From: Agrococcus sp.
GTDB lineage: Bacteria > Actinomycetota > Actinomycetes > Actinomycetales > Microbacteriaceae
NCBI GenBank assembly: GCA_031178105.1
Contig: JAPSJX010000004.1
Coordinates: 1-54,278, forward strand
Direction: 5' to 3'
DNA: 54,278 nucleotides
This document shows positions 6,654 through 30,694 of the stretch, piece by piece (the stretch's first letter is position 1; each line of letters starts with the position of its first letter). The notes under the pieces were generated by a model that saw only the letters and a program-made list of their open reading frames with translations, was not told the origin of the DNA and did no database searches. The translations under genes were made by a program, and so were the position numbers.

Positions 6654-8213
6654 ATGTCCGACATCACCTTCCAGCTGCTGGCGATCGCGATCTACTTCGC
6701 CGCCATGATCGGCATCGGCGTCTACGCCGCGCGCAAGACGAAGAGCCACGAGGACTACATGCTCGCCGGCCGCGAGCTGAGCCCCGCCACCGCGGCGCTC
6801 TCCGCAGGTGCGTCCGACATGTCGGGGTGGCTGCTCATGGGCCTGCCCGGCGCGATCTACGCGGCGGGGCTCATCGAGGGCTGGATCGCCATCGGCCTGA
6901 CCATCGGTGCGTACCTGAACTGGAAGTTCGTCGCCCCGCGGCTGCGCGCCTACACGGAGGTCGCCAGGAACTCGATCACGATCCCGAGCTTCTTCGAGAA
7001 CCGCCTCCGTGACCGCTCGCGCGCGCTGCGCATCGTGTCGGGCCTCATCATCCTGGTCTTCTTCACGTTCTACGTCTCGTCGGGCATGGTCGCCGGCGGC
7101 GTCTTCTTCGAGTCGACGTTCGGCGCGAGCTACATCTGGGGGATGCTCCTCGTGAGCGGCGTCACGCTGCTCTACACGCTGTTCGGCGGATTCCTGGGCG
7201 CGTCGCTCACCGACGTCGTGCAGGGCCTGATGATGTTCCTCGCGCTCATCATCATCCCCGTCCTCGCGTTCTTCACCGTCGGCGGCCTGCAGGGCGTCCA
7301 GGAGGGCATCACGGCGTCGGGCGCGGAGCTGTCCGGCCTGATCCCGGCGGACGTCGACGGCATGGTCATCCTGGGGATCATCTCGTCGCTCGCGTGGGGG
7401 CTCGGCTACGTCGGCCAGCCGCACATCATCGTGCGGTTCATGGCGCTGAGGTCCGTCGCCGCGGCGAAGCCGGCACGGCGCATCGGCATCGGATGGATGG
7501 TCATCTCCCTCGTCGGCGCGGTGGTCTCCGGCTTCGTCGGCATCGCCTACATCCAGCAGTCCGGCGAGGAGCTCGCGAACCCCGAGACGGTCGTGCTCGC
7601 GATGTCGCAGGCGCTGCTGCACCCCTTCGTCGCGGGGCTCGTGCTCGCCGCCGTGCTCGCCGCCATCATGTCGACGCTCTCGAGCCAGCTGATCGTCTGC
7701 TCGTCGGCGCTCGTGGAGGACCTCTTCCAGGTCTTCGTCAAGCGGCCGCCGTCGCAGAAGGTGCTCGTCCTGCTCGGCCGAGCGTGCGTGCTCGCCGTCG
7801 CCGCCGTCGCCGCGGTGCTGGCCATCACGCCGTCCGACACGATCCTCGGCCTCGTCGGATTCGCCTGGGCCGGCTTCGGCGCCGCGTTCGGGCCGATCGT
7901 GCTGCTGAGCCTCTTCTGGCGGAGGCTGACGAACTGGGGCGCGCTCGCCGGCATGATCGTGGGCGCCGCGACCGTCTTCATCTGGGACGCGGTCGAGCAG
8001 GCCACCGACATCCCGTTCTTCACGCTCTACGAGATCGTGCCCGGCTTCGTGCTCAACCTCGTCGTCGCGGTCGTCATCAGCCTCGTCGTGCACCGCCACG
8101 ACGGGGTGGTCGACGAGGAGTTCACCCGCACCGGCCGCATTGTCGCGCTGCGACCGGACGAGCCGGGCCACGTGGCCGCCCCGGCCGCGGCCGACCGCGA
8201 CGCGCTGCGCTGA
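6654..8213 (+). CDS. putP: Sodium/proline symporter
   Basis: A 519-residue solute:sodium symporter family protein with about 13 membrane helices and the PutP hallmark sequences SAGASDMSGWLLMGLPGAIY (residues about 50-70) and LAWGLGYVGQPHIIVRFMA (about 247-265). It imports proline with Na+, for osmoprotection or as carbon/nitrogen source. The start ATG has a clear GAGGAG ribosome site. It is monocistronic, followed by a gap of about 120 bases before the NRPS-like gene. The proline specificity is by family resemblance. Confidence 0.92.
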   Translation: MSDITFQLLAIAIYFAAMIGIGVYAARKTKSHEDYMLAGRELSPATAALSAGASDMSGWLLMGLPGAIYAAGLIEGWIAIGLTIGAYLNWKFVAPRLRAYTEVARNSITIPSFFENRLRDRSRALRIVSGLIILVFFTFYVSSGMVAGGVFFESTFGASYIWGMLLVSGVTLLYTLFGGFLGASLTDVVQGLMMFLALIIIPVLAFFTVGGLQGVQEGITASGAELSGLIPADVDGMVILGIISSLAWGLGYVGQPHIIVRFMALRSVAAAKPARRIGIGWMVISLVGAVVSGFVGIAYIQQSGEELANPETVVLAMSQALLHPFVAGLVLAAVLAAIMSTLSSQLIVCSSALVEDLFQVFVKRPPSQKVLVLLGRACVLAVAAVAAVLAITPSDTILGLVGFAWAGFGAAFGPIVLLSLFWRRLTNWGALAGMIVGAATVFIWDAVEQATDIPFFTLYEIVPGFVLNLVVAVVISLVVHRHDGVVDEEFTRTGRIVALRPDEPGHVAAPAAADRDALR

Positions 8214-8331: not shown

Positions 8332-11300
8332 ATGAGCGGCACGATCGACGGCGTCCTGGCAGGGGCGCCCCTCGCTCCCCCGCCCCGCACCCTGCTCGAC
8401 GTGCTGCGCGACAGCGTGCAGGCCAACCCCGACGGCTCCGCGATCGAGGACGCCGCGGGCGCCCTCAGCTACCGCGAGATGATGGCCGCGGTCGCGCGCA
8501 CCGCCGCGCGCCTCTCGCTCGAGGGCGTCGGGCGCGGCGACCGCGTCGGCATCCGGATGCCGTCGGGCGCGAGGGAGCTCTACATCGCGATCCTCGGCGT
8601 CATGGCCGCCGGCGCGGCCTACGTGCCCGTCGACGCCGACGACCCCGAGGAGCGCGCGGCGCTCGTCTTCGGGGAGGCCGCCGTGCGTGGCGTCATCTCC
8701 GGCGGCGGGCAGTACGCGGGAGCGGGGCCGCACGCGAAGCCCGCCGTCGCGCTCTTCGACGGCGCTCCGGCGCATCCGAGCACCGCCGGCGCGCCCATCC
8801 CGTCGCTGCCCTCGCCGGGCGACGACGCCTGGATCATCTTCACCTCCGGCTCGACGGGCACGCCGAAGGGCGTCGCCGTCAGCCACCGCTCCGCGGCCGC
8901 GTTCGTTGACGCGGAGTCGCGACTGTTCCTGCAGGACGACCCCATCGGCCCGGGCGACCGGGTGCTCGCCGGCCTGTCGGTCGCGTTCGACGCGTCGTGC
9001 GAGGAGATGTGGCTCGCATGGGCGCACGGCGCGTGCCTCGTGCCCGCGCCTCGCTCGCTCGTGCGCAGCGGCATGGACCTGGGGCCGTGGCTCACGCTCC
9101 GCGGCATCACCGTCGTCTCGACCGTGCCGACGCTCGCCGCGCTCTGGCCGGCGTCGTCGCTCGAGCACGTGCGGCTGCTGATCTTCGGCGGCGAGGCCTG
9201 CCCGCCCGAGCTCGTCGAGCGGCTCGCCACCGACGGCCGCGAGGTGTGGAACACGTACGGCCCCACCGAGGCGACCGTCGTGGCATGCGCGGCGCTGCTG
9301 TCCCCGGGCGAGCCGGTGCGGATCGGGCTGCCGCTCGACGGCTGGGACCTCGCGGTCGTCGACGATCGCGGCGAGCCGGTCGCCGAGGGCGGCGTGGGCG
9401 AGCTCATCATCGGCGGCGTCGGCCTCGCGCGCTACCTCGACCCCGCGAAGGACGCCGAGAAGTACGCCGCCCTGCCGTCCCTGGGCTGGGACCGCGCCTA
9501 CCGCTCCGGCGACCTCGTGCGCTTCGATCGCGACGGGCTGTTCTTCCAGGGTCGCGCCGACGACCAGGTGAAGGTGGGCGGCCGCCGCATCGAGCTGGGC
9601 GAGATCGAGGCGGCGCTGCAGCTGCTGCCCGGGGTGCAGGCCTCGACCGTCGTCGTGCAGCGCACGGACGCGGGCAACCAGGTGCTCGTCGGCTACCTGG
9701 GCTGCGACGTCGCGGCCTTCGACCGCCAGTCGGCGCTTGCGCGGCTCCGCGACGAGCTGCCCGCAGCGCTCGTGCCGCTCCTCGCGCCGATGCCCGAGCT
9801 GCCCACGCGCACGTCGGGCAAGGTCGACAAGGCGGCGCTCCCCTGGCCGCTGCCGGGCGCGTTCGATGCCGACGACACCGCGACCTCCGACCCCGGGCTG
9901 GCGCTGCTGGCCGCCGACTGGCAGGCGGTGCTCGGCGTGCCTGCCGACGGGGAGGGCGCCGACTTCTTCGCCCTCGGCGGCGGCTCGCTCGCGGCCGCGC
10001 AGCTCGTGACCCGCATCCGCTCCCGCTCGCCGGAGTTCACGGTCGCGGACATCTACGCCTACCCGCGACTGGGTGCGATGGCAGCCGAGCTCACAGCGCG
10101 CGCGGGCGGCGGCGCGCCGGCTCCCGTCTCGACGCACGACGTGCGGCGCACGCCGCGCAGCACCCAGTGGGTCCAGACGGCGCTCGGGGTGCCCCTCTTC
10201 ATCCTGAGCGGGATGCGGTGGCTGCTCGCCGCGCTCACCGCCTCCACGATCCTGGGCGCCCTCGACGGCTTCGACGCGCTGCCGACCGCGGAGCCCTGGC
10301 TGCTGATCCTCGGCCTCCTCGTCTTCGCGACGCCGTTCGGCCGGATGGCGATCGCGGTGGTCAGCGCCCGGCTGCTGCTGCACGGGCTGGAGGCCGGCGA
10401 CTACCCGCGCGGCGGCCGCGTGCACCTCCGGCTGTGGCTGGCGGAGCAGGTCGCGCAGCAGGTCGGTGCCGTCGGCCTCGCGGGAGCCCCGTGGGTGACG
10501 CTCTACGCCCGCGCGCTCGGCGCGCGCATCGCCGACGACGTCGACCTCCACGCCGTGCCGCCCGTCACGGGAATGCTCCGGGTCGGCCGCGGCGCCTCCA
10601 TCGAGCCGGAGGTCGACCTCAGCGGGTACTGGATCGATGGCGATGTCGTGCGCATCGGCGCCGTCCGCATCGGCGCGCGCAGCACGGTGGGTGCACGCTC
10701 GACGCTGGCCCCGGGCACGCGGATCGGCAAGGACGCGGTGATCGCGCCCGGCTCGGCCGTCTTCGGCCGGGTGCGCTCGGGCGAGCGCTGGGCGGGCTCT
10801 CCCGCGAGCCGCATCGGCGCCGCGAAGCCGTGGTGGGCGCCCGAGCGCCCGCCGAGGGATGCGCGCTGGGCGTGGGCCTACGGCCTGTCGGCGATCGCGC
10901 TCTCGATCCTGCCGCTCCTCGCGCTCGCCGCCGGCGGCGCGGTCGTGGCCGCCGGCGTGGCCGGCGCCGAGTCGCTCGGCGAGGTCGCCCTGCGGGCGGT
11001 CGCCTGGATCGCGCCCGCGACGGTCGTGGCCGGCCTCGCCCTCGCCGCGCTCGTCGTGCTGTCGGTGCGACTGCTGGCGATCGGCATGACCGAGGGCGTC
11101 TTCCCGGTGCACAGCGCCAACGGCTGGCGCGTCTGGGCGACGGAGCGGGTGCTCGACATGGCCCGTACCGCGCTCTTCCCGCTCTACGCCTCGCTCGCCA
11201 CCCCCGGGTGGCTGCGGCTGCTCGGCGCCCGGGTGGGCCGGGACGCCGAGATCTCCACCGTGCTGCTCGTGCCGACGATGACGACGATCCACTCCGGCGC

Positions 11301-12279
11301 GTTCCTCGCGGACGACACGCTCGTCGCCTCCTATGAGCTCGGCGGGGGCTGGGTGCGCATCGCCCACGCCGAGATCGGCGAGCGCGCCTTCCTCGGCAAC
11401 TCCGGCATGGCAGGAGCGGGCAACCGCATCCCGAACGACGCGCTCGTGGCCGTGCTCTCGGCCGCGCCGCGCAAGTCGAAGAAGGGCTCGTCGTGGCTCG
11501 GCTCCCCGCCGGTGGCGCTGCGCCGCACCGTGGTCGAGGCCGATCATGCGCGCACCTACGCGCCGCCCGCACGGCTGCGCGTCGCACGCGCGCTGTGGGA
11601 GCTCTGCCGGATCGTTCCCGTCATCGTCACGTGCGCGCTCGGCGTCGCCGTCATGCTCGCGCTGCTCTGGATCGCGGATGCGTGGGGCGGCCTCGCCGCG
11701 GCGCTCCTGAGCGGTGTGGTGATGCTCGCGGCGGGTGCGGTCGCCGCCGGCATCAGCACGGCCGCGAAGTGGGCGATCGTCGGCCGCATCCGCATCGGCG
11801 AGCATCCGCTCTGGTCGTCGTTCGTGTGGCGCAGCGAGGTCGCCGACACGTTCACCGAGATGGTGGCCGCGCCGTGGTTCGCGCACTCGGCCGCCGGCAC
11901 GCCCGCGCTGGTCTGGTGGCTGCGGAGCCTCGGCGCCACCATCGGCGACGGCGTCTGGGTCGAGAGCTACTGGCTGCCGGAGGCGGACCTCGTCACGCTG
12001 CGCGACGCGTCCGCCGTCAACCGCGGCTGCGTCGTGCAGACGCACCTGTTCCACGACCGCATCATGTCGATCGACGAGGTCGTGCTCGAGCACGGCGCGA
12101 CGCTCGGGCCGCACAGCGTGATCCTGCCCGCCGCGAGGATCGGCGAGCACGCGACCGTCGGCCCGGCGTCGCTCGTCATGCGCGGCGAGCTCGTGCCCGA
12201 CCGCAGCCGGTGGAGCGGCAACCCGATCGGCCCGTGGCGCGAGGTCACGTTCGCCGACTACCACGCGGTGAGCGCGTGA
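8332..12279 (+). CDS. Pls/PosA-type NRPS-like protein (A-PCP-membrane/LbH terminal domain)
   Basis: A 1315-residue single-module synthetase. Residues about 30-520 form an adenylation domain: A3 FTSGSTGTPKG, FDASCEEMWLAW with Asp220, NTYGPTEAT, YRSGDLVRFDRDG, and a PTRTSGKVDK lysine. A carrier domain follows with phosphopantetheine Ser552 in LGGGSLA. The rest repeats a pair of membrane segments plus a left-handed beta-helix (hexapeptide) domain three times: TM about 613-680 then about 723-833, TM about 847-920 then about 963-1063, TM about 1090-1146 then about 1183-1306. This is the layout of epsilon-poly-lysine synthetase and the TIGR02353 terminal domain. There is no condensation or thioesterase domain. 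ATG 8332 has a GGAGG-like ribosome site. Its stop overlaps the M1 peptidase start. Product unknown; a membrane-made isopeptide homopolymer is the leading idea. Confidence 0.9.
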   Translation: MSGTIDGVLAGAPLAPPPRTLLDVLRDSVQANPDGSAIEDAAGALSYREMMAAVARTAARLSLEGVGRGDRVGIRMPSGARELYIAILGVMAAGAAYVPVDADDPEERAALVFGEAAVRGVISGGGQYAGAGPHAKPAVALFDGAPAHPSTAGAPIPSLPSPGDDAWIIFTSGSTGTPKGVAVSHRSAAAFVDAESRLFLQDDPIGPGDRVLAGLSVAFDASCEEMWLAWAHGACLVPAPRSLVRSGMDLGPWLTLRGITVVSTVPTLAALWPASSLEHVRLLIFGGEACPPELVERLATDGREVWNTYGPTEATVVACAALLSPGEPVRIGLPLDGWDLAVVDDRGEPVAEGGVGELIIGGVGLARYLDPAKDAEKYAALPSLGWDRAYRSGDLVRFDRDGLFFQGRADDQVKVGGRRIELGEIEAALQLLPGVQASTVVVQRTDAGNQVLVGYLGCDVAAFDRQSALARLRDELPAALVPLLAPMPELPTRTSGKVDKAALPWPLPGAFDADDTATSDPGLALLAADWQAVLGVPADGEGADFFALGGGSLAAAQLVTRIRSRSPEFTVADIYAYPRLGAMAAELTARAGGGAPAPVSTHDVRRTPRSTQWVQTALGVPLFILSGMRWLLAALTASTILGALDGFDALPTAEPWLLILGLLVFATPFGRMAIAVVSARLLLHGLEAGDYPRGGRVHLRLWLAEQVAQQVGAVGLAGAPWVTLYARALGARIADDVDLHAVPPVTGMLRVGRGASIEPEVDLSGYWIDGDVVRIGAVRIGARSTVGARSTLAPGTRIGKDAVIAPGSAVFGRVRSGERWAGSPASRIGAAKPWWAPERPPRDARWAWAYGLSAIALSILPLLALAAGGAVVAAGVAGAESLGEVALRAVAWIAPATVVAGLALAALVVLSVRLLAIGMTEGVFPVHSANGWRVWATERVLDMARTALFPLYASLATPGWLRLLGARVGRDAEISTVLLVPTMTTIHSGAFLADDTLVASYELGGGWVRIAHAEIGERAFLGNSGMAGAGNRIPNDALVAVLSAAPRKSKKGSSWLGSPPVALRRTVVEADHARTYAPPARLRVARALWELCRIVPVIVTCALGVAVMLALLWIADAWGGLAAALLSGVVMLAAGAVAAGISTAAKWAIVGRIRIGEHPLWSSFVWRSEVADTFTEMVAAPWFAHSAAGTPALVWWLRSLGATIGDGVWVESYWLPEADLVTLRDASAVNRGCVVQTHLFHDRIMSIDEVVLEHGATLGPHSVILPAARIGEHATVGPASLVMRGELVPDRSRWSGNPIGPWREVTFADYHAVSA

Positions 12280-13637
12280 GCCCGTCGAGCGCCGCGACGC
12301 TGGCCGCAGATGCGTACACACCCGGCTCCGGCGACGTCGCGTGGGACGCGCTGCACTACGACCTCGCGATCGACTACCGCGTCGCGACCAACCGGCTCGA
12401 CGGCGTCGCCCGCATCTCGGGTCGCGCGACGACCGAGCTGCGCGCGATCGCGCTCGACCTCGTCGGGCTGCGCGCGAGCCGCGTGACGCTCGACGGCGCG
12501 CGGGCGCAGCACACCGCGCGCGGGCCGCGGGTCACGGTGCGGCCGTCGGCGCCGATCGCCGCGGGTGCGCGCTTCGAGCTCGAGGTGGCCTACGCCGGTT
12601 CCCCGGCCCCGCGGCGCACGAGCTGGGGCCTCGTCGGCTGGGAGGAGCTCGAGGACGGCGTCATCGTCGCGTCGCAGCCCACCGGCGCCCCGACGTGGTT
12701 CCCGTGCAACGACCGGCCGTCGGACAAGGCGACCTACCGCATCCGCATCACGACCGAGCAGTCGTACCGGGCCGTCGCGACCGGGACGCTCGTCGAGGAG
12801 TCGACCTCGTCAGGGCGCACGAGCCGCACCTTCGCGTGCCGCACGCCCGCCGCGACCTACCTCGTGACCGTGCAGATCGGCCGCTACGCGCGCCGCGCGG
12901 TCACCGACGCATCGGTGCCCGCGGCCCAGGTGCCGATCGTCGCGCTCCATCCCGCAGCGCTCGAGCGCCGGGTGGCGGCCGACCTCGGCCTGCTGCCGGC
13001 GATGCTGGCGTGCTTCGTCGAGCGGTTCGGGCCCTACCCGTTCGACGACTACACGGTGATCGTGACGGAGGACGACCTCGAGATCCCGCTCGAGGCGCAC
13101 GCGTCGGCGATCTTCGGCGCCAACCACATCGACGGCAGGGGCGGCGAGGAGCGGCTCATCGCGCACGAGCTCGCGCACCAGTGGTTCGGCAACAGCGTCG
13201 GCGTCGCCGCCTGGCAGCACATCTGGCTCAACGAGGGCCTCGCGTGCTACGCGGAGTGGCTGTGGTCGGAGGCGGCGGGCCGGGAGACGACGGATGCGCT
13301 CGCGCGCGTCCACCACCGCCGGCTCGCGGGCCTGCCGCAGGACATCGTGCTCGGCGACCCCGGCCCCGCGCTCATGTTCGACGACCGGGTCTACAAGCGC
13401 GGTGCGCTGCTCGTGCACGCGCTGCGGCTCACGCTCGGCGACGTGCGGTTCTTCGGGATGCTGCACGACTGGACCGCGCTGCACGTCTCCTCGACCGTCA
13501 CGTCGGACGACTTCCGGCGCCTGGCCGCGCAGATCGCGGAGCGGCCGCTCGACGAGCTGTTCGACGCCTGGCTCGTGGGCACCGAGCTGCCGCCGCTGCC
13601 GGAGCGACGCGGCGGGAAGCGGCGCGCCCCGCGCTGA
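12276..13637 (+). CDS. M1-family zinc aminopeptidase, short form
   Basis: A 453-residue metallopeptidase with HELAHQWFG at His297-Glu298-x-x-His301 and NEGLA with Glu320, fitting the HExxH-x18-E zinc site of family M1. The classical GAMEN substrate motif is replaced by a PLEAHASAIFG-like segment. At about half the length of PepN it ends soon after the catalytic domain, as in the short actinobacterial M1 group. No signal peptide is seen. GTG 12276 overlaps the NRPS-like stop (GTGA), giving translational coupling; that suggests it acts on the NRPS-like product or a precursor, which is inference. It is followed by a 12-bp hairpin at the stop codon. Confidence 0.9.
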   Translation: MSPSSAATLAADAYTPGSGDVAWDALHYDLAIDYRVATNRLDGVARISGRATTELRAIALDLVGLRASRVTLDGARAQHTARGPRVTVRPSAPIAAGARFELEVAYAGSPAPRRTSWGLVGWEELEDGVIVASQPTGAPTWFPCNDRPSDKATYRIRITTEQSYRAVATGTLVEESTSSGRTSRTFACRTPAATYLVTVQIGRYARRAVTDASVPAAQVPIVALHPAALERRVAADLGLLPAMLACFVERFGPYPFDDYTVIVTEDDLEIPLEAHASAIFGANHIDGRGGEERLIAHELAHQWFGNSVGVAAWQHIWLNEGLACYAEWLWSEAAGRETTDALARVHHRRLAGLPQDIVLGDPGPALMFDDRVYKRGALLVHALRLTLGDVRFFGMLHDWTALHVSSTVTSDDFRRLAAQIAERPLDELFDAWLVGTELPPLPERRGGKRRAPR

Positions 13638-13653
13638 GCTCGCGCGGGGCGCG
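13623..13653. terminator. Bidirectional hairpin between M1 peptidase and PPTase
   Basis: A perfect 12-bp stem (CGCGCCCCGCGC at 13623-13634, complement at 13642-13653) with loop TGAGCTC, which contains the M1 peptidase stop codon. It separates the convergent peptidase and PPTase genes. Confidence 0.65.
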
Positions 13654-14190
13654 TCAGCCCTCGAGCGCGAGGCTCACGACGAGCGCATCGCCCAGGTCGA
13701 CGTCGTGGACCTCGAAGCGACGCGCCGATCCGGGCACCGCGGCGATGAGCGCGGCGTGGTCGTCGCGCAGCACGACCGCGGCCGGGTCGACGCGCAGTCC
13801 GCGGCCGTCGGCCTTCAGCACCGCCTCGATCTGCGTCCAGCGCCGCAGCGCGTCTGCGCCGCTGGCGGGCAGCAGCGCCCGCAGCGCCTCCACGCGGCCC
13901 GGTAGCGCTTCGTGCGGCTCCGCGTCGACGCCGATCCGACCACCGCGCCGGGCGACCGCCACGTGCAGCTCCCCCGCGTGCGCGAGCGAGACGGCGATGT
14001 CGCGCGCCCTGGGCGGCTCCATCACCACGGGCCGTCCGTGCGGTCCGCCGCAGTCCGGGCACCGCTGCACGATCGAGACGGATGCGTCGTCGACGTCCGC
14101 GAGGTCCGCGACGAGGGCGCGCAGGAGCGCGTGACCGTCCGCCCGCGAGCCGCGCACGCGGGCCACGACCGCACCTGCGACCTGCTGCAT
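13654..14190 (-). CDS. Sfp-type 4'-phosphopantetheinyl transferase
   Basis: A 178-residue enzyme that moves phosphopantetheine from CoA to a carrier-domain serine. Family motifs: SLAHAG with His71, IGVDAEP with metal-binding Asp89 and Glu91, and WTQIEAVLKADGRG with Trp118, Glu122 and Lys126 (the WxxKEAxxK motif, with Ile for the usual Lys before Glu). It is shorter than Sfp (about 225 residues) because the N-terminal half is reduced. It faces the NRPS-like/M1 pair, whose carrier Ser552 is the obvious target in this window. It lies 44 bases downstream of a GH13 gene on the same strand and may share its transcript. Confidence 0.85.
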   Translation of the reverse strand: MQQVAGAVVARVRGSRADGHALLRALVADLADVDDASVSIVQRCPDCGGPHGRPVVMEPPRARDIAVSLAHAGELHVAVARRGGRIGVDAEPHEALPGRVEALRALLPASGADALRRWTQIEAVLKADGRGLRVDPAAVVLRDDHAALIAAVPGSARRFEVHDVDLGDALVVSLALEG

Positions 14191-24469: not shown

Positions 24470-25882
24470 CTAGTGCAGCTCGCTCCCCCGCGCCGGCTCC
24501 GCGAGCACGGCGCGCGCGGCGAGGCCGACGATGGCCGTGTAGGTCGGGTACGCGAAGCGCACGTTCGCGAGCGTCGCGACGTCCGCGCCCGCCGCCATGG
24601 CCGTCGTCACCGACTGGATGACCTCGATCGCGTTCTCTCCGACCGCGTGCGCGCCGAGGATGAGCGATCGGCGCCGGTCGGCGACGAGCTTCAGGAAGCC
24701 TGTGGCGCGGTCGTCGATCACTGCGCGGTCGAGCTGCTCGTACCGCGCCGTCGCGACCACGCACTGGGCGTCGCGCGCACGGGCCTGCTCCTCGGTGAGG
24801 CCCACGCCGGCGTAGTCCGGGTCGGTGAAGCCGCCGGCGGGCAGCAGCAGGTGCGACGTGCGGCGGTTCGCGCCGACGACGGCGTTCTCCGCAGCAGCCT
24901 CCCCCTCGAACTGCGCCGCCTGCACGAGCATGTCCCTCCCGTTCGCATCGCCGACGGCGTAGATGTGCGGCACGACGCTGCGGAAGTACTGGTCGGCGGG
25001 GATCGCTGAGCGCTCCGGGGTAATCCCCGCACGCTCGAGCCCGAGGTCGTCGACGTCGGCGGGCCAGCCGGCTGCCATCACGACCGCGTCGAAGCGCTCG
25101 CTGCTGGCGTCGCCGGCCTCCGTCCAGCGCAGGTCGATCCGGCCGTCGTCCGCGCGGCTCAGCCCGTCGATCGACGCGATGCCGGCGCGGACCACCACGC
25201 CCACCCTGCGGAAGGCGGCGGTCACCTCCTCCGCGATCGCGGCATCCGACGGCATGAGGATGCGCGGCGCGATGTCGAGCAGCGTCACCGCGGCGCCGAA
25301 CGCGTTCAGCACCGTCACGAGCTGCGCGCCCGTGTTGCCGCCACCGATCACGGCGACGCGAGACGGCAGGGCGTCCAGGTGCAGGACCTCCTCCGGCATG
25401 GTCGCGAGCTCGGCACCGGGGATCGGCAGCCGCCGGGACCGGCCACCGACGCAGACGAGGATCGACGCCGCTCGCACGCGCCGGCCGCTGTCGAGCACGA
25501 GGGTGTGCGCGTCCTCGAAGCGCGCGCGCCCCTCCTCGACGAGGTCGACGCCTGCCGCGGCGAAGCGCTGCGCCTCGCGCTTCATGGCCCGCACCTCGTC
25601 GACGCGGCCGTGCACCCGCTCCACGAGCGTCGGCCAGTCGACCCCGACGCCCGAGACGTCGACGCCGTGCTCGTGGGCGGTGCGGGCGTCGCGGATGAGC
25701 CGCGCCGACTTCGCGAGCACGCGGGTGGGCACGCACCCGCTGTTCACGCAGGTGCCGCCGACGCGCTTCGCCTCGAGCACCACCACGGTCGCTCCGAGCT
25801 CTTGGGCGCGCAGGGCGGCGGCGGTGCCGGCCGGCCCGGCACCGATCACGGCGACGTCGTAGTGGTCGATCGCTTCGTCCAT
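24470..25882 (-). CDS. Pyridine nucleotide-disulfide oxidoreductase (MerA/Lpd-like) lacking the HPxxE dyad
   Basis: A 470-residue flavoprotein: FAD motif VIGAGPAG (about 12-19), redox disulfide GGTCVNSGCVP with Cys45 and Cys50, NAD(P) motif VIGGGNTG in the middle, and a C-terminal dimerisation domain. In lipoamide, glutathione and mercuric reductases the partner subunit gives a His-Pro-Thr-x-x-Glu dyad; here that position reads Tyr445-Pro446-Thr447 with no Glu after it, so the standard acid-base pair is absent. The electron acceptor is unknown. RBS AGGGAG precedes ATG 25882. An upstream in-frame extension exists but starts before the FAD motif without family similarity. Confidence 0.9.
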   Translation of the reverse strand: MDEAIDHYDVAVIGAGPAGTAAALRAQELGATVVVLEAKRVGGTCVNSGCVPTRVLAKSARLIRDARTAHEHGVDVSGVGVDWPTLVERVHGRVDEVRAMKREAQRFAAAGVDLVEEGRARFEDAHTLVLDSGRRVRAASILVCVGGRSRRLPIPGAELATMPEEVLHLDALPSRVAVIGGGNTGAQLVTVLNAFGAAVTLLDIAPRILMPSDAAIAEEVTAAFRRVGVVVRAGIASIDGLSRADDGRIDLRWTEAGDASSERFDAVVMAAGWPADVDDLGLERAGITPERSAIPADQYFRSVVPHIYAVGDANGRDMLVQAAQFEGEAAAENAVVGANRRTSHLLLPAGGFTDPDYAGVGLTEEQARARDAQCVVATARYEQLDRAVIDDRATGFLKLVADRRRSLILGAHAVGENAIEVIQSVTTAMAAGADVATLANVRFAYPTYTAIVGLAARAVLAEPARGSELH

Positions 25883-25982
25883 CGGGGCTCCCTGTCGACT
25901 CGTGCGGGCAAGCGTAGGGCACGCTCGTGTGCATCCCGGAGACGTCGAACCTGAGAACCTGATCCACAGACGGCGCCGACGC

Positions 25983-26011
25983 TTGCGCGGGCATCCGGCT
26001 GCCTGCATCCT
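25983..26011 (+). promoter_or_regulatory. Promoter of small membrane protein, leaderless
   Basis: -35 TTGCGC (25983-25988), 17-base spacer, -10 CATCCT (26006-26011), then six bases to ATG 26018. No ribosome site is present. Confidence 0.5.
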
Positions 26012-26017
26012 GACGGC

Positions 26018-26371
26018 ATGAGCGCGATCTCGCCCACGGCGGGCGGATTCCCCCGCCCCGCCAGGGCCGGCACGAAGCACGACGCCTGGCCGCTCGCGGT
26101 CGTCGCGATCGTCGTCGCCGCCGCCGCGGCCGGCGCGATGCAGACCGGGTCCTGGGTCAACGCGGTCGACGGCCCGGTCGAGCTGTTCTTCGTCGTCGGG
26201 ATGGTGCTGCTCGTGTGGGCGGCGATCGCCTGCGTCGGTGCCCTCATCGTGCTGCTGCGGCGCCGGCGGGGCGGCGGCGCGAGCGCGGCCGTGATCGGGG
26301 CCACGATCGCGATCATCGCTGCCACGCTGACCGTGCACCCCATCATCGGCTCGGGCACCGGCTCCGGCTGA
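26018..26371 (+). CDS. Small membrane protein, three predicted TM segments
   Basis: A 117-residue membrane protein with hydrophobic stretches at about 27-45, 55-82 and 92-108; an Arg-rich loop (LRRRRGGG) sits between the last two. No family recognised. It is divergent from the flavin reductase and preceded by a good leaderless promoter. Together with the 55-residue protein downstream it may serve the envelope; there is no direct evidence. Confidence 0.6.
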   Translation: MSAISPTAGGFPRPARAGTKHDAWPLAVVAIVVAAAAAGAMQTGSWVNAVDGPVELFFVVGMVLLVWAAIACVGALIVLLRRRRGGGASAAVIGATIAIIAATLTVHPIIGSGTGSG

Positions 26372-26458
26372 GGCCCGGGGTCAGCCGCGGGCGCGGTCCA
26401 CCCGGCCGGGGCGTTCGACCTGCTCGGGGCGGTCCGCGCGCCGCCCCGGTCGCCCTGC

Positions 26459-26482
26459 TACCATTGCTTCGTGCACGAAGCA
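26459..26482 (+). promoter_or_regulatory. Promoter with overlapping 18-bp palindromic operator
   Basis: -10 TACCAT (26459-26464) is immediately followed by the perfect palindrome TGCTTCGTGCACGAAGCA (26465-26482), which covers the expected start of transcription. A dimeric regulator bound there would block initiation. The MarR/OhrR-like gene at 26715-27194 is the nearest candidate regulator. Confidence 0.5.
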
Positions 26483-26529
26483 TCTTCGCGAGCAGCGCGT
26501 GGAGCGGCGCGCCGTCCGGAGGGACCGAG

Positions 26530-26697
26530 ATGACCGAGCAGCAGCAGTCCGGCGTGACGGTGCAGGCGCCCCGCGATCCGCAGAGCTTCACCCGCGGCGA
26601 CGTCATCGCCATCAAGCTCGCCATCGTGGGCGGCAGCCTGCTCGCGCTCGCTGCGACGGCTGCGTTCTTCGTGCTGGTGGTCGTCCCCGGGATGTGA
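26530..26697 (+). CDS. 55-residue single-TM membrane protein
   Basis: Starts MTEQQQSGVTVQ, a polar N-terminus of about 27 residues followed by one membrane helix (IAIKLAIVGGSLLALAATA region). A good ribosome site (GGAGGGA) precedes ATG 26530. It is controlled from the palindrome-bearing promoter about 50 bases upstream and is convergent with the MarR-type gene. Function unknown. Confidence 0.6.
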   Translation: MTEQQQSGVTVQAPRDPQSFTRGDVIAIKLAIVGGSLLALAATAAFFVLVVVPGM

Positions 26698-26714
26698 CCG
26701 CTCGGGCAGCGGGC

Positions 26715-27194
26715 TCAGTGCTCGCGGTGCGCCGGATCCTCGCGACGCGCCCCGTCGGCGGCGTCGATCAGCCGCGTCGTGAGCGCGCGCAGCTGCTGCA
26801 GCTCCTCGGGCTCGAGGCCCAGGCGCTGCACCATCGTGCCGGGCACTGCCTCGGCCCGCTCGCGGAGCCGCCGGCCCTCCTCGGTGAGGGCGATGTCGAG
26901 CGTGCGCTCGTCGTCAGCGCGCCGCGTGCGCGTGACGAGCCCCGCCGCCTCGAGCCGCTTCACGAGCGGCGAGGCGGTGGCCGGCTCCAGCCGGAGCATC
27001 TCGCTGAGCGCCCGCAGCGACAGCGGCGACGAGCCCCAGAGGGCGAGCATCACGAGGTACTGCGGGTGCGACAGGCCCAGCGGCTGCAGCACGGGGCGGT
27101 AGGCGTTGACGATGCTGCGCGAGGCCGCGGCGAGCGCGAAGCAGACCTGGCGCTCGAGGGCGAGCGCATCGTCCGCGATCTCGTCGTGCTCCAT
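26715..27194 (-). CDS. MarR-family regulator, OhrR-like (redox-sensing cysteine)
   Basis: A 159-residue winged helix protein. The segment LERQVCFALAAASR with Cys18, followed by YRPVLQPLGLSHPQYLVMLALW, closely resembles OhrR, whose N-terminal Cys is oxidised by organic hydroperoxides and releases DNA. The winged helix (RALSEMLRLEPATASPLVKRLEAAGLVTRTRRADDERT) is about 65-100. ATG 27194 is chosen over an upstream in-frame start because it has GGGGGAG upstream and a -10 box TACGCT (27226-27231). No ohr peroxidase gene lies in the window, so its regulon is open; the palindrome at 26465 is a possible target. Confidence 0.85.
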   Translation of the reverse strand: MEHDEIADDALALERQVCFALAAASRSIVNAYRPVLQPLGLSHPQYLVMLALWGSSPLSLRALSEMLRLEPATASPLVKRLEAAGLVTRTRRADDERTLDIALTEEGRRLRERAEAVPGTMVQRLGLEPEELQQLRALTTRLIDAADGARREDPAHREH

Positions 27195-27225
27195 GGCGCT
27201 CCCCCGTCCTCGCGTCCGACCGCTC

Positions 27226-27231
27226 AGCGTA
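27226..27231 (-). promoter_or_regulatory. -10 box of the MarR/OhrR-like gene
   Basis: Minus-strand TACGCT, 32 bases before the ATG, with RBS GGGGGAG between. The -35 is weak. Confidence 0.4.
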
Positions 27232-27281
27232 TCGGCCCGCGCACGCCCCGCGAGGTGGCGCGCGACCTGCTGCGGCACTGC

Positions 27282-27287
27282 CATGCT
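27282..27287 (+). promoter_or_regulatory. -10 box of truncated NYN gene
   Basis: CATGCT ends six bases before ATG 27294, the same leaderless spacing seen elsewhere in the window. It implies that the remnant kept its original promoter. Confidence 0.35.
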
Positions 27288-27293
27288 GAACGC

Positions 27294-27395
27294 ATGGCGA
27301 AGCCCCACGACCTCCTGGCGGTGCTCGTCGATGCCGACAACGTCTCGCCGGCGCGGGTCGGGGCCGTCAGCTCGTGCCGTCGGAACGGCGGCTGA
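27294..27395 (+). pseudogene. Truncated N-terminus of NYN-domain (LabA/DUF88-like) protein
   Basis: The frame encodes MAKPHDLLAVLVDADNVSP and a few more residues, then ends at TGA after 33 codons. VLVDADNVSP is the first strand and first catalytic Asp of the NYN RNase domain (PIN-like), which normally continues for 150 or more residues. The sequence loses similarity at about codon 25 and no remainder was found nearby. It is the broken start of a NYN gene at the left edge of the ferredoxin/PPK2 cassette, likely a recombination scar. Confidence 0.6.
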
Positions 27396-27403
27396 GGGGC
27401 GTC

Positions 27404-27829
27404 ATGGCGAAGCAGCGATCGAAGCGTCGGGAGCAGTCGGAGTCCCCGGAGCAGGTGACGGTCGTCGTCTGCCGAGGCGGTGACTGCGGGAGCCGGCGCA
27501 AGCATCCCGACGTCGACCACGTCGGTCAGCTCGCGGCGCTCCGAGCGGGCACAGCGGGCGCCGCGACCGTCGTCCCCAGCAAGTGCCTCGACGCGTGCGA
27601 GCACTCGAACGTCGTCGTCGTCATGCCCGGCGATGCAGGCAGCGGCGCGGGTGCGACCCCGGTGTGGATCGGCGAGGCGAACGACGAGGCCATGACGAAC
27701 GACGTCGTCGAGTGGGTCAGGGCCGGCGGTCCGGGCGTCGCACCGGATCCGACGCTCGTCGCCATCCATGAGTTCCGCCCGACTCGCCAGAGTCGCATGG
27801 AGCTCGCTCCCGGGCACGCGCTGCCCTGA
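27404..27829 (+). CDS. Thioredoxin-like [2Fe-2S] ferredoxin-domain protein
   Basis: A 141-residue protein. VVVCRGGDCGS gives Cys23 and Cys28 and VVPSKCLDACEHSNVVVVMP gives Cys61 and Cys65, the four-cysteine pattern of thioredoxin-fold [2Fe-2S] ferredoxins. A basic start (MAKQRSKRREQ) and a C-terminal WIGEANDEAMTNDVVEWV helix complete the fold. ATG 27404 has GAGGGG upstream. It is the first gene after the truncated NYN frame and may form a unit with the kinase, hydrolase and PPK2 genes, though a gap of about 200 bases separates them. The electron partner is unknown. Confidence 0.8.
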   Translation: MAKQRSKRREQSESPEQVTVVVCRGGDCGSRRKHPDVDHVGQLAALRAGTAGAATVVPSKCLDACEHSNVVVVMPGDAGSGAGATPVWIGEANDEAMTNDVVEWVRAGGPGVAPDPTLVAIHEFRPTRQSRMELAPGHALP

Positions 27830-27833
27830 CCCG

Positions 27834-27920
27834 CAGACGGGCCGTCTGGGTCGCCGTGCTCACCGGTGGCACCCGATCACACAGCCAGATGCTCCTACTG
27901 TGTATGTCTGCGACGCAGAC
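27834..27920. promoter_or_regulatory. Regulatory gap with stacked inverted repeats
   Basis: Three short inverted repeats: CAGACGG/CCGTCTG (27834-27848), ACACAG/CTGTGT (27879-27884 with 27898-27903) and the 15-base near-palindrome GTCTGCGACGCAGAC (27906-27920). A -10-like TACTGT (27896-27901) lies between the arms. The first may end the ferredoxin transcript; the others could be operators of the downstream operon. Confidence 0.35.
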
Positions 27921-28037
27921 CGCGGTCCGGATGACGTCCTCGAGGTTGGTTCGAGGCGGAGCCGGGCTCCGAGCACGTCCCATGGCAGCGGTGCACCTGC
28001 GGCCGTGGGCTCGCCACAACCACACGGAGGACCGGGC

Positions 28038-29027
28038 ATGACGACCGACACCGCTCGCAAGACCGCGGCCGTGATCTACAACCCCATCAAGGTCGACATC
28101 GATGCGCTGCGCGCCGCGGTCACCGCTGCAGCGAGCGCCGCGGGCTGGGCGGAGCCGACCTGGTACGAGACGTCCGTCGAGGATGTCGGCCAGGGCGTCA
28201 CGCGCCGAGCGCTGGACGACGGCGCGGACCTGATCATCGCCGCAGGCGGCGACGGCACCGTTCGCGCAGTCGCGGAAGCAGTCCGCGGCAGCGGCACCAG
28301 CGTCGCGCTGCTCCCGTCCGGCACCGGCAACCTCCTGGCACGGAACCTCGACCTCACGCTCGACGACATGGAGCACTCGCTGCAGGTCGCGTTCACCGGC
28401 GTCGACCGCGCCATCGATCTCGGCGTGATCGACATCGAGCGCGACGACCGCACTCGCACCCGGCACGTCTTCGTGGTCATGGCCGGGATGGGCATGGACG
28501 CGAAGATGATCGAGAACACCGACGACGACCTCAAGGCCAAGGCCGGATGGGCCGCCTACCTCAAGGCGATCGTCACGTCGCTGCGCGACCCGAACGAGCT
28601 GCGCCTGCGCTTCCGCCTCGACGAGGGCAAGACGAAGCGTGCGACGGTGCACACGGTGATCCTCGGCAACTGCGGATCCCTCCCGGCGAACGTCCTCCTG
28701 CTCCCCGACGCGGTCGTGGACGACGGCCTCTTCGACCTGATGCTCATGCGACCCGGTGGGGCGCTCGGCTGGCTCCGGGTCTGGTGGAAGGTCGCCTGGA
28801 TCAACGGGATCGTGCGCCGCAGCAAGGCCGGCAGGGCCATCGCTGGGGAACGACGCAACGACGGCGACCTGCACTACCAGACCGGCACCCGATTCACCGC
28901 CCGCCTCTCACGGCCCGAAGCGATCGAGCTCGACGGCGACGGCTTCGGGAAGGCCATCGCGTTCGACGCGTGGATCGATGCCGGCGCCCTCGCCGTCCGC
29001 GTGCCCGCGAGCACGGACTCCGAATGA
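28038..29027 (+). CDS. Diacylglycerol/lipid kinase family protein
   Basis: A 329-residue kinase of the DgkB/YegS family that phosphorylates a lipid hydroxyl with ATP at the membrane face. AAVIYNPIKVD (about 10-20) is the first strand; AAGGDGTVRAVAE holds the nucleotide loop Gly70-Gly71-Asp72-Gly73-Thr74; LLPSGTGNLLARNL (about 93-106) is the second conserved loop. The C-terminal beta-sandwich follows. A GGAGG ribosome site precedes ATG 28038. Its stop overlaps the hydrolase start (ATGA), so the two are coupled. The lipid substrate is unknown. Confidence 0.9.
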   Translation: MTTDTARKTAAVIYNPIKVDIDALRAAVTAAASAAGWAEPTWYETSVEDVGQGVTRRALDDGADLIIAAGGDGTVRAVAEAVRGSGTSVALLPSGTGNLLARNLDLTLDDMEHSLQVAFTGVDRAIDLGVIDIERDDRTRTRHVFVVMAGMGMDAKMIENTDDDLKAKAGWAAYLKAIVTSLRDPNELRLRFRLDEGKTKRATVHTVILGNCGSLPANVLLLPDAVVDDGLFDLMLMRPGGALGWLRVWWKVAWINGIVRRSKAGRAIAGERRNDGDLHYQTGTRFTARLSRPEAIELDGDGFGKAIAFDAWIDAGALAVRVPASTDSE

Positions 29028-29863
29028 CGCCCGGCACCACCACGGATCCCGCGCCGGCGTCGGCTGCGCCTGACCCGACGCGCACCGATCCGGCGGTGCG
29101 GATGCGGACGGTCGATGGACTCGCCTTCCGAACGCTCTCGAGCGCCTCGACCGATCCGAGACCGACGGTCTTCGTCCTGATCCATGGGATCGGCACGTCC
29201 CACCGCTACATGGTGAGGCTGCACGATGCGCTGGCGGCGGGCGCCGAGGTGCATTCGATCGACCTCCCCGGCTTCGGCGGCCTCCCCAAGCCGGCCGGGT
29301 CACCGGATGTGTCCCGGATCGCCGGTGCGCTGGCGACGGTGCTCGACGACCTCGGTGTGCGCGGCGCTGTGCTGATCGGCCATTCGATGGGCGCCCAGTG
29401 GGTGGTCGAGCTCGCCGTCCAGCGGCCGGACCTCGCGCAGGCTGTGGCGATCAGCAGCCCCGTCACCGACAGCGAGCACCGCAGCCTGCTGACCCAGACC
29501 CTGCTGCTCGCGCACGACTGCCTGCGCGAACCCCCCACCGTGAGCGTCACCGTCATGCCGGACTATCTCCGCTGCGGACCCGTCTGGTACTTCAAGCAGG
29601 TGCGCCACATGCTCCGCTATCCCCTCGAGCATCGGGTCGCCCAGCTCGCAGCGCCGCTGCTCGTCATCCGCGGCGGCGCTGACCGCATCGCCGGGCAGCG
29701 ATGGTGCACGCGGCTGAGCGAGCTGGCACCGTCCGGATCGATGGCGGTCATCCCCGGGCACCGGCACGTCGTGCAGTTCACGGCCGCTGCTGCCTTCGCC
29801 GCGCGCATCCGCACGTTCCTGGATCAGGTGTCCGTCACCGACGGACCCCACCTCACCGACTGA
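29024..29863 (+). CDS. Alpha/beta hydrolase
   Basis: A 279-residue alpha/beta-hydrolase fold enzyme: HGIGTSHRY oxyanion segment (about 54-62), nucleophile Ser121 in GHSMGA, an Asp in GGADRIA (about 230), and the catalytic His in PGHRHVV (about 249). It hydrolyses an ester, amide or C-C bond; a lysophospholipase-type or haloperoxidase-like role is possible. It is sandwiched between a lipid kinase and PPK2, coupled to the former by a four-base overlap. Confidence 0.88.
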   Translation: MTPGTTTDPAPASAAPDPTRTDPAVRMRTVDGLAFRTLSSASTDPRPTVFVLIHGIGTSHRYMVRLHDALAAGAEVHSIDLPGFGGLPKPAGSPDVSRIAGALATVLDDLGVRGAVLIGHSMGAQWVVELAVQRPDLAQAVAISSPVTDSEHRSLLTQTLLLAHDCLREPPTVSVTVMPDYLRCGPVWYFKQVRHMLRYPLEHRVAQLAAPLLVIRGGADRIAGQRWCTRLSELAPSGSMAVIPGHRHVVQFTAAAAFAARIRTFLDQVSVTDGPHLTD

Positions 29864-29872
29864 GAGCACACC

Positions 29873-30694
29873 ATGGCCAGCAAGAAGCACGACAAGAAGA
29901 GCAAGACCCCTCGGGTGGACAAGAAGAAGTACGAGAAGGAGCTGCGGCGCCTGCAGATCGAGCTCGTCAGCATGCAGCAGTGGGTCACAGCCGCCGACGC
30001 CCGCGTGCTCGTGCTCTTCGAGGGCCGCGACGCCGCCGGCAAGGGCGGCGCGATCAAGCGGGTGATGCAGTACCTCAACCCGCGCCATGCCCGCGTCGTC
30101 GCCCTCCCGCAGCCGACCGAGCGGGAGAAGGGTCAGTGGTACTTCCAGCGGTACATCGAACGGCTCCCCACCAAGGGCGAGATCGTGCTGATGGACCGGT
30201 CCTGGTACAACCGCGCCGGCGTCGAGAAGGTGATGGGCTACTGCACCGACGAGGAGTACGACCGCTTCCTCGCCCAGGCTCCCGTCGTGGAGCAGCTGCT
30301 CGTCGACGACGGCATCATCCTCGTGAAGTACTGGTACTCCGTCTCCGACACCGAGCAGGAGAAGCGGTTCCGGTCCCGGCTGAACGACCCCATGCGGCGG
30401 TGGAAGCTCTCGGAGACCGACCTGCTGTCGATCACGAAGTGGGAGGACTACTCCCAGGCCAAGGACGCGATGTTCGATGCCACCGATCGGGCACACGCGC
30501 CGTGGTGGTCCATCAACAGCGACGACAAGCGCGCAGCACGGCTGAACACCATCAGCCATCTGCTCAGCCAGGTCCCGTACGACCGCCTCGATCCTGACGA
30601 GGTGCACTTCCCGGACCGGCCGGCCGCGGCTGCGGCGCTCCGACCTCCGATCGATGAGCAGCGGTTCGTCCCCGACCACGCCGCGACGCTCTGA
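29873..30694 (+). CDS. ppk2: Polyphosphate kinase 2
   Basis: A 273-residue PPK2-family enzyme that uses polyphosphate to phosphorylate nucleoside mono- or diphosphates. Walker A GRDAAGKGG (Gly51 onward) and the lid/Walker B LMDRSWYNRAGVEKVMG (about 105-121) are intact. The single domain of usual length places it among the class I-like single-domain PPK2s; nucleotide preference cannot be read. It starts nine bases after the hydrolase. The basic N-terminus (MASKKHDKKSK) is common. Last gene of the kinase/hydrolase/PPK2 operon, ended by a short hairpin. Confidence 0.93.
   Translation: MASKKHDKKSKTPRVDKKKYEKELRRLQIELVSMQQWVTAADARVLVLFEGRDAAGKGGAIKRVMQYLNPRHARVVALPQPTEREKGQWYFQRYIERLPTKGEIVLMDRSWYNRAGVEKVMGYCTDEEYDRFLAQAPVVEQLLVDDGIILVKYWYSVSDTEQEKRFRSRLNDPMRRWKLSETDLLSITKWEDYSQAKDAMFDATDRAHAPWWSINSDDKRAARLNTISHLLSQVPYDRLDPDEVHFPDRPAAAAALRPPIDEQRFVPDHAATL

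What the first reader, a model, noticed from the sequence alone, without database searches (positions are those of the whole stretch)
8332..14190. Poly-lysine-synthetase-like NRPS coupled to an M1 peptidase and a facing PPTase
Sequence: the NRPS-like protein has A and carrier domains (Ser552) and three repeats of two membrane helices plus a hexapeptide-type domain. The M1 peptidase starts inside its stop codon, and an Sfp-type PPTase faces the pair. Known: this layout is that of epsilon-poly-L-lysine synthetase (Pls) and TIGR02353 proteins. Inference: a compact system for making an amino-acid homopolymer, where the peptidase trims or recycles it.
Basis: partly seen in the sequence, partly recalled or inferred. 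Interest (0 to 1): 0.7.

Follow-up and report, generated by a model that had tools for sequence, protein, structure and literature searches.

The report
Poly-lysine synthetase, peptidase and activator genes
These three neighbouring bacterial genes most likely make, activate and break down the antimicrobial polymer epsilon-poly-lysine; the synthetase-peptidase pair is already known from other bacteria, while the missing export signal on the peptidase and the linked activating enzyme are details that I did not find described.

Summary
Window 8332-12279 (+) encodes a 1315-aa Pls/PosA-family NRPS, 12276-13637 (+) a two-domain M1 zinc peptidase whose GTG start overlaps the NRPS stop by 4 nt, and 13654-14190 (-) a divergent Sfp-type PPTase. 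[quoted passage not shown]

The pls-peptidase operon is published for Streptomyces and Corynebacterium, and lysine-pocket Pls homologues for Microbacterium, so the core is known. Two features not found in my paper searches: (1) peptidases of the S. albulus-type clade carry a twin-arginine-like signal (11 of 11), while the window's clade lacks it (0 of 129), so its peptidase is predicted cytosolic; (2) the PPTase goes with pls (same genus: 10 of 10 pls+ genomes, 1 weak match in 13 pls-). In two same-genus genomes without pls, an M1 frame beside putP has lost its zinc motif and the PPTase is absent. No product or activity has been shown here.

The parts
8332..12279 (+). pls-type NRPS (epsilon-poly-L-lysine synthetase), 1315 aa
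   Evidence: TIGR02353 701 bits; best PDB match 7WEW, E 1.6e-186
8377..9861 (+). adenylation domain, residues 16-510; pocket D220 A221 E224 S263 I284 G286 T308 V316 V317 K497
9907..10089 (+). carrier (T) domain, residues 526-586; Ser552 codon at 9985-9987
   Evidence: PF00550 39.3 bits; motif located
10171..12228 (+). C-terminal region C1-C3 with long helices (model: about residues 609-682, 844-916 and 1080-1150) and hexapeptide-type beta-helices
   Evidence: TIGR02353 profile 2-695 of 695; AlphaFold2 model; Foldseek hits to hexapeptide acetyltransferases at low coverage
12276..13637 (+). PldII-like two-domain M1 zinc peptidase, 453 aa, no export signal seen, start overlapping the pls stop (GTGA)
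   Evidence: N-terminus
13164..13235 (+). zinc motif HELAH-18-E (H297, E298, H301, E320); the invariant E273 of PLEAH lies upstream
   Evidence: invariant in alignment A2, 39 sequences; present in 146 of 146 M1 genes of the pls loci (145 by the pattern, L240 read)
13654..14190 (-). probable Sfp-type 4'-phosphopantetheinyl transferase, 178 aa, convergent with the M1 gene
   Evidence: PF01648 20.7 bits, below cut-off; motifs GVDAE and WTQIEAVLK; co-occurrence with pls

Best explanation
An epsilon-poly-L-lysine module. The PPTase attaches phosphopantetheine to Ser552 of the synthetase; the A domain activates L-lysine (D220 for the alpha-amino group, E224 for the side-chain amine, by analogy with PosA); the membrane-anchored C1-C3 domains join lysines through the epsilon-amino group into a chain of a few tens of residues. 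The M1 peptidase, whose start overlaps the synthetase stop, hydrolyses the polymer. Because it lacks the twin-arginine-like signal of S. albulus-type neighbours, it is predicted to act in the cytosol, on chains not yet released or taken back in (self-protection or lysine recovery). Shown by sequence: genes, pocket, catalytic residues, conserved order and overlap, linkage of the PPTase. Inferred: product, hydrolysis, location, and the PPTase's target.
For: A domain 66% identical to 7WEW, with the same ten pocket residues as 7WEW and 98 of 100 related loci. Full-length identity 53% to a synthetase whose A domain is 94% identical to 7WEW; C. variabile Pls, which makes epsilon-PL in S. coelicolor, is about as far from Streptomyces Pls (51%). 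M1 downstream in 80 of 80 named loci, 19 of 20 relative loci and 28 of 30 lysine-code loci of a phylum sample; the one read locus with a different code (DFEYNGTVTK, L044) has no M1. Four-base overlap as reported for S. albulus (passages). HExxH-18-E in 146 of 146 M1 genes (one duplicate pair). PPTase relative in 10 of 10 same-genus pls+ genomes against 1 of 13 pls-; two or more ACPS-superfamily genes in 20 of 21 pls+ against 4 of 38 pls- relatives. In two same-genus genomes without pls the M1 beside putP has lost the zinc motif and the PPTase is absent.
Against: No product or activity was measured. C. variabile itself made no detectable epsilon-PL, nor did its gene in C. glutamicum. M1 is missing beside L200 and L214, which have the lysine code, and beside two S. 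albulus-clade synthetases, L232 and L236. The PPTase scores below Pfam's cut-off and has Ile for the usual first Lys of its motif; it was found in none of 35 Mycobacteriales loci and is not convergent and close in 9 of 41 Micrococcales loci; outside the genus only 6 of 11 pls+ relatives match it at E 1e-5. Absence of a signal rests on a simple hydropathy and Arg-Arg rule, and the S. albulus PldII sequence itself was not at hand.
Confidence: 0.85

Rival explanations
1. The synthetase makes another cationic homopolymer (poly-ornithine, poly-diaminobutyrate, poly-beta-lysine) and the M1 peptidase is matched to that polymer.
For: Synthetases of this family with other pockets make other polymers, and pocket codes can be permissive.
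Against: All ten pocket residues equal those of 7WEW; position 2 is Ala as in lysine enzymes, not Met (ornithine) or Phe (Dap/Dab); a peptidase operon is described for pls but not for the three other synthetases compared.
Confidence: 0.08
2. Not exclusive of the best explanation: the polymer is epsilon-PL but is not mainly a secreted antibiotic; it stays in or on the cell, with the M1 enzyme as a cytosolic turnover enzyme.
For: 0 of 129 readable M1 N-termini of the window's clade have the signal, against 11 of 11 in the S. albulus-type clade, one change on the tree; six Streptomyces genomes hold both clades; C. variabile gave no detectable epsilon-PL.
Against: The C. variabile enzyme gives 26-35-mers in culture extracts of S. 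coelicolor; production may only be silent in the lab. Whether C. variabile falls in the window's clade was not tested.
Confidence: 0.25
3. The PPTase is an ordinary neighbour or a general-purpose PPTase, linked by chance.
For: It is about 8 and 11 kb from the M1 gene in two same-genus genomes and was found in none of 35 Mycobacteriales loci.
Against: It has no match in 12 of 13 same-genus genomes without pls and is convergent within 1.1 kb of M1 in 32 of 41 Micrococcales loci; two same-genus genomes whose synthetases lie on a distant branch carry one near M1 too.
Confidence: 0.12

Closest known systems
pls-pldII operon of Streptomyces albulus (epsilon-poly-L-lysine synthetase and degrading enzyme II)
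   Same: Domain order A-T-three C domains, identical pocket code, peptidase gene downstream with a 4-nt overlap
   Different: 53% full-length identity to an S. albulus-type synthetase and 42% for the M1 beside it (L223, an unnamed Streptomyces); no twin-arginine-like signal on the M1; a PPTase is linked here, none was found in the 20 Streptomyces regions
Corynebacterium variabile Pls and Pls homologues of coryneform bacteria, Microbacterium included (PMC8117764)
   Same: Pls with lysine pocket in operon with a peptidase; product shown by heterologous expression
   Different: Its Results section (read whole) says nothing of a PPTase or of the peptidase's location; its sequences were not compared here
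PosA, delta-poly-L-ornithine synthetase of Acinetobacter baumannii (PMC10522769)
   Same: Same family; the NCBIfam model is named for both
   Different: Pocket DMEHNGTVSK and a single-gene operon
Deinococcus radiodurans two-domain M1 zinc metallopeptidase (6A8Z, 6IFG)
   Same: Same two-domain fold, Z 46.7 over 428 residues for 6IFG
   Different: 31-32% identity

Membership tests
epsilon-poly-L-lysine synthetase (Pls) | A-T followed by the Pls/PosA terminal region (C1-C3 with membrane helices) | tested here: met
   TIGR02353 701 bits, profile 2-695 of 695; model with three helix-plus-hexapeptide repeats
epsilon-poly-L-lysine synthetase (Pls) | Lysine pocket code DAESIGTVVK | tested here: met
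   Identical to 7WEW at ten positions
epsilon-poly-L-lysine synthetase (Pls) | Makes epsilon-poly-L-lysine | not testable with these tools
   No assay; a homologue about as distant does
[quoted passage not shown]
   GTGA overlap; M1 fold; HELAH-18-E
[quoted passage not shown]
   By a simple rule, no twin-arginine or hydrophobic N-terminus, unlike 11 of 11 S. albulus-clade neighbours; so it is filed as a PldII homologue, not as PldII itself
[quoted passage not shown]
   No assay
Sfp-type PPTase | Profile match and Mg/CoA motifs (G[IV]D.E and W..KEA..K, recalled) | tested here: inconclusive
   PF01648 20.7 bits against 25; motifs present except Ile for the first Lys, a position that is Lys in 27 of 50, Val in 14 and Ile in 6 aligned relatives

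The most novel reading that the evidence does not exclude
In most of the poly-lysine loci seen here the system is not the secreted-antibiotic pathway known from S. albulus but a separate, larger branch in which the peptidase is a cytosolic partner made in step with the synthetase; the exported S. albulus-type peptidase would be the exception. In Micrococcales, whose relatives without pls mostly carry a single ACPS-superfamily gene, the module brings its own dedicated PPTase, and the parts decay together.
Probability: 0.4. Interest if true: 0.6.

Novelty: new member of a known kind. Interest (0 to 1): 0.42.

Why it matters
Why a producer makes a poly-lysine-cutting peptidase together with the synthetase is unsettled for S. 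albulus, where reports on its effect on chain length conflict (passages). The split between signal-bearing and signal-less peptidases gives a direct test: a cytosolic enzyme cannot shorten polymer already outside. The linked PPTase names a partner to co-express when mining such synthetases from Micrococcales.

Tried and rejected
Orphan M1 as a stand-alone immunity gene: considered when G006 and G013 showed an M1 match beside putP without pls, rejected because G006 reads HLLAH for HExxH and Asp for the distal Glu, and G013 is a truncated remnant.

DIWQSTADDK code rows (L177, L188, L189, L191, L195, L196, L215): rejected as an artefact; judged from the low scores and the open-frame lengths, my script had picked a generic NRPS frame near a different TIGR02353 protein. 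These 7 and L190, L192, L216 (10 of 40 fetched) were left out of the code-to-M1 count; none of the 10 had an M1.

A whole solved relative of C1-C3: among the 50 Foldseek rows shown only single acyltransferase-type chains appear, with TMq up to 0.17.

Papers: the listings (TIGR02353, no paper) showed none that I could recognise as reporting a PPTase linked to pls or the export-signal difference; they cover an open-access library only, most listed papers were not opened, and Yamanaka 2010 was not held. Genus of the genome: not determined; family f1 is taken as Microbacteriaceae because G027 of f1 gives the same protein as the named Frondihabitans record (L033 = L053). One of the 80 named records was put in a cyanobacterial order and one in no order by the name look-up, not followed up.

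Full report
WHAT IS THERE. The NRPS runs from ATG 8332 to TGA 12279 (1315 aa). It has an AMP-binding domain (221 bits), a carrier domain (39.3 bits; Ser552 in FALGGGSL) and hexapeptide repeats, and matches NCBIfam TIGR02353, 'Pls/PosA family non-ribosomal peptide synthetase', at 701 bits over positions 2-695 of 695 (cut-off 423). The M1 gene starts with GTG at 12276, sharing GTGA with the NRPS stop. The minus-strand gene 13654-14190 is a divergent PPTase: its Pfam ACPS score is 20.7 bits against a cut-off of 25.

SUBSTRATE. [quoted passage not shown] 66% identity over residues 16-510; that it is from S. albulus is recalled). The ten specificity positions (mapping to PheA recalled, then read from an alignment) are D220 A221 E224 S263 I284 G286 T308 V316 V317 K497. 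This DAESIGTVVK is identical in 7WEW and in 98 of the 100 loci aligned (L033 and L053 are one genome); of the other two, L008 has no A domain on its contig and L044 reads DFEYNGTVTK. The PosA paper (passages; section 10 read) gives Ala at position 2 for lysine enzymes, Met for ornithine, Phe for Dap/Dab, and a conserved Glu that binds the side-chain amine. Lysine is the well-supported prediction.

C-TERMINAL HALF. An AlphaFold2 model of residues 601-1315 on 46 sequences (pLDDT 82.1, pTM 0.85) shows, three times, long helices followed by a short-stranded beta-helix. Foldseek's best solved matches are hexapeptide acyltransferases, mostly serine acetyltransferases, at low coverage. This fits the C1-C3 and TM1-TM6 layout described for Pls (PMC8117764, Results read).

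PEPTIDASE. The M1 protein models as a two-domain M1 enzyme (pLDDT 91.3), closest to the D. radiodurans M1 zinc metallopeptidase (Z 46.7, 428 residues, 31% identity). H297, E298, H301, E320 and E273 are invariant in 39 aligned sequences. HExxH-18-E is present in 146 of 146 M1 genes of the pls loci (145 by the pattern, L240 with HETAH read).

NEIGHBOURHOOD. In 80 named loci (the best 80 of 585 confirmed candidates, so biased to close relatives) an M1 gene lies on the same strand downstream in 80 of 80. Among 20 loci from relatives it is there in 19, missing in L044. In a phylum sample 39 of 396 genomes had the synthetase. I fetched 40 places (39 of the 46 rows and one): 30 had the lysine code and 28 of these an M1 (not L200, L214); in the other 10 my script did not read the right protein, and none had an M1. 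Of 13 Streptomyces loci of the S. albulus-type clade, 11 had an M1 (not L232, L236, clade); all 7 loci of the other clade had one.

TWO CLADES AND THE EXPORT SIGNAL. The FastTree tree of 150 synthetases separates an S. albulus-type clade of 13 from 135 others (local support 100 on both), with L044 and L214 outside; these two have long branches, so the root is unsure. The window lies in the large clade with its own genus and other Microbacteriaceae. In the S. albulus-type clade the M1 N-terminus is of the kind MTRCSRRALIRGAALLPFAATVADG (L223, whose synthetase is 94% identical to 7WEW in the A domain), a twin-arginine-like signal, in 11 of 11 readable cases. In the other clade, window included, 0 of 129 readable cases have both the Arg pair and a hydrophobic stretch (L179 has the hydrophobicity alone); 10 of the 150 rows could not be read, four of them because no M1 was found (L200, L214, L232, L236). 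The tree needs one change of this trait. This was done with a simple rule, and all S. albulus-type cases are unnamed Streptomyces; S. albulus PldII itself was not at hand. That enzyme is reported on the outer side of the membrane (PMC9223678, passages). The window's clade is therefore predicted to keep its peptidase in the cytosol.

THE PPTASE. In the same genus, 10 of 23 genomes other than the window's have the synthetase. All 10 have a relative of the window's PPTase at E 1e-5; 1 of 13 without the synthetase has one, a 29.7-bit match in G023. Over all 59 relatives the match is in 16 of 21 with and 1 of 38 without the synthetase. Counting all ACPS-superfamily genes, 20 of 21 synthetase-bearing relatives have two or more against 4 of 38 without (Fisher 7e-11, not corrected for kinship; same genus 10 of 10 against 2 of 13). 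The exception, G034, has a match to the window's PPTase beside its M1. Among named loci it is convergent within 1.1 kb of the M1 in 32 of 41 Micrococcales, 0 of 35 Mycobacteriales and 1 of 4 others; that Mycobacteriales have a general Sfp-type enzyme, PptT, is recalled and not tested. In four same-genus genomes it is not adjacent (about 2, 2, 8 and 11 kb away), and in G020 it is on another contig. Two same-genus genomes, G009 and G021, have synthetases from a distant branch and each has a PPTase within 0.4 kb of its M1, which suggests that the linkage arose or moved more than once.

LOSS OF THE MODULE. In the window the synthetase follows a PutP-type proline symporter gene. In G006 and G013, which lack the synthetase, an M1 frame lies beside the same putP, but it reads HLLAH for HExxH and Asp for the distal Glu in G006, and is truncated without the motif in G013. 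Neither has a PPTase match. In three of the five other pls-less genomes fetched (L245-L247) putP and the amylase gene are 3-6 kb apart with other DNA between, not examined; in L248 and L249 no amylase match was found. So neither partner stays intact without the synthetase in these two cases.

WHAT IS KNOWN. pls and pldII of S. albulus overlap by 4 nt and form an operon (PMC4361855, passages). C. variabile Pls, 51% identical to Streptomyces Pls, is in operon with a peptidase gene and makes 26-35-mer epsilon-PL in S. coelicolor, though none was detected from C. variabile itself or from C. glutamicum carrying the gene; homologues with lysine pockets were listed for Microbacterium and others (PMC8117764, Results read). 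The window's synthetase is 53% identical to an S. albulus-type one. On the role of PldII, a review says inactivation had no effect on production or length (PMC8506220, passages), while a CRISPRi study reports longer chains on repression (PMC9223678, passages).

VERDICT. A new member of a known kind, with two clade-wide features that I did not recognise in the listings. Activity, product and location remain to be tested.

Noticed in passing
L243:7913-9505 (G006) and L244:3971-4849 (G013): Degraded M1 genes beside putP in same-genus genomes without pls; G006 keeps a long open frame with the zinc motif replaced, so it is either decaying or a pseudoenzyme.
   Followed up: partly
L177, L188-L192, L195, L196: Streptomyces-genus (g42) loci with a second kind of TIGR02353 protein (open frames of 816-1106 aa) and no M1; most have an ordinary NRPS frame nearby.
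   Followed up: no
L076, L088, L090, L092, L097, L206: Williamsia, Tsukamurella and one unnamed locus have about 0.3-2 kb more between the ends of pls and M1, and no M1 start near the pls stop.
   Followed up: no
L227/L228, L230/L231, L232/L233, L234/L235, L236/L237, L238/L239: Six Streptomyces genomes carry both synthetase clades with the same or nearly the same pocket code (DAESVGTVVK in L228 and L237).
   Followed up: partly
window 6654-8213 (+): Sodium/proline symporter PutP gene directly upstream; it marks the site in several same-genus genomes with and without pls.
   Followed up: partly
window 24470-30694: Pyridine nucleotide-disulphide oxidoreductase in a 622-aa frame whose domain begins only at residue 160 (extension or misplaced start), a YegS-type diacylglycerol kinase and a PPK2 polyphosphate kinase gene.
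   Followed up: no
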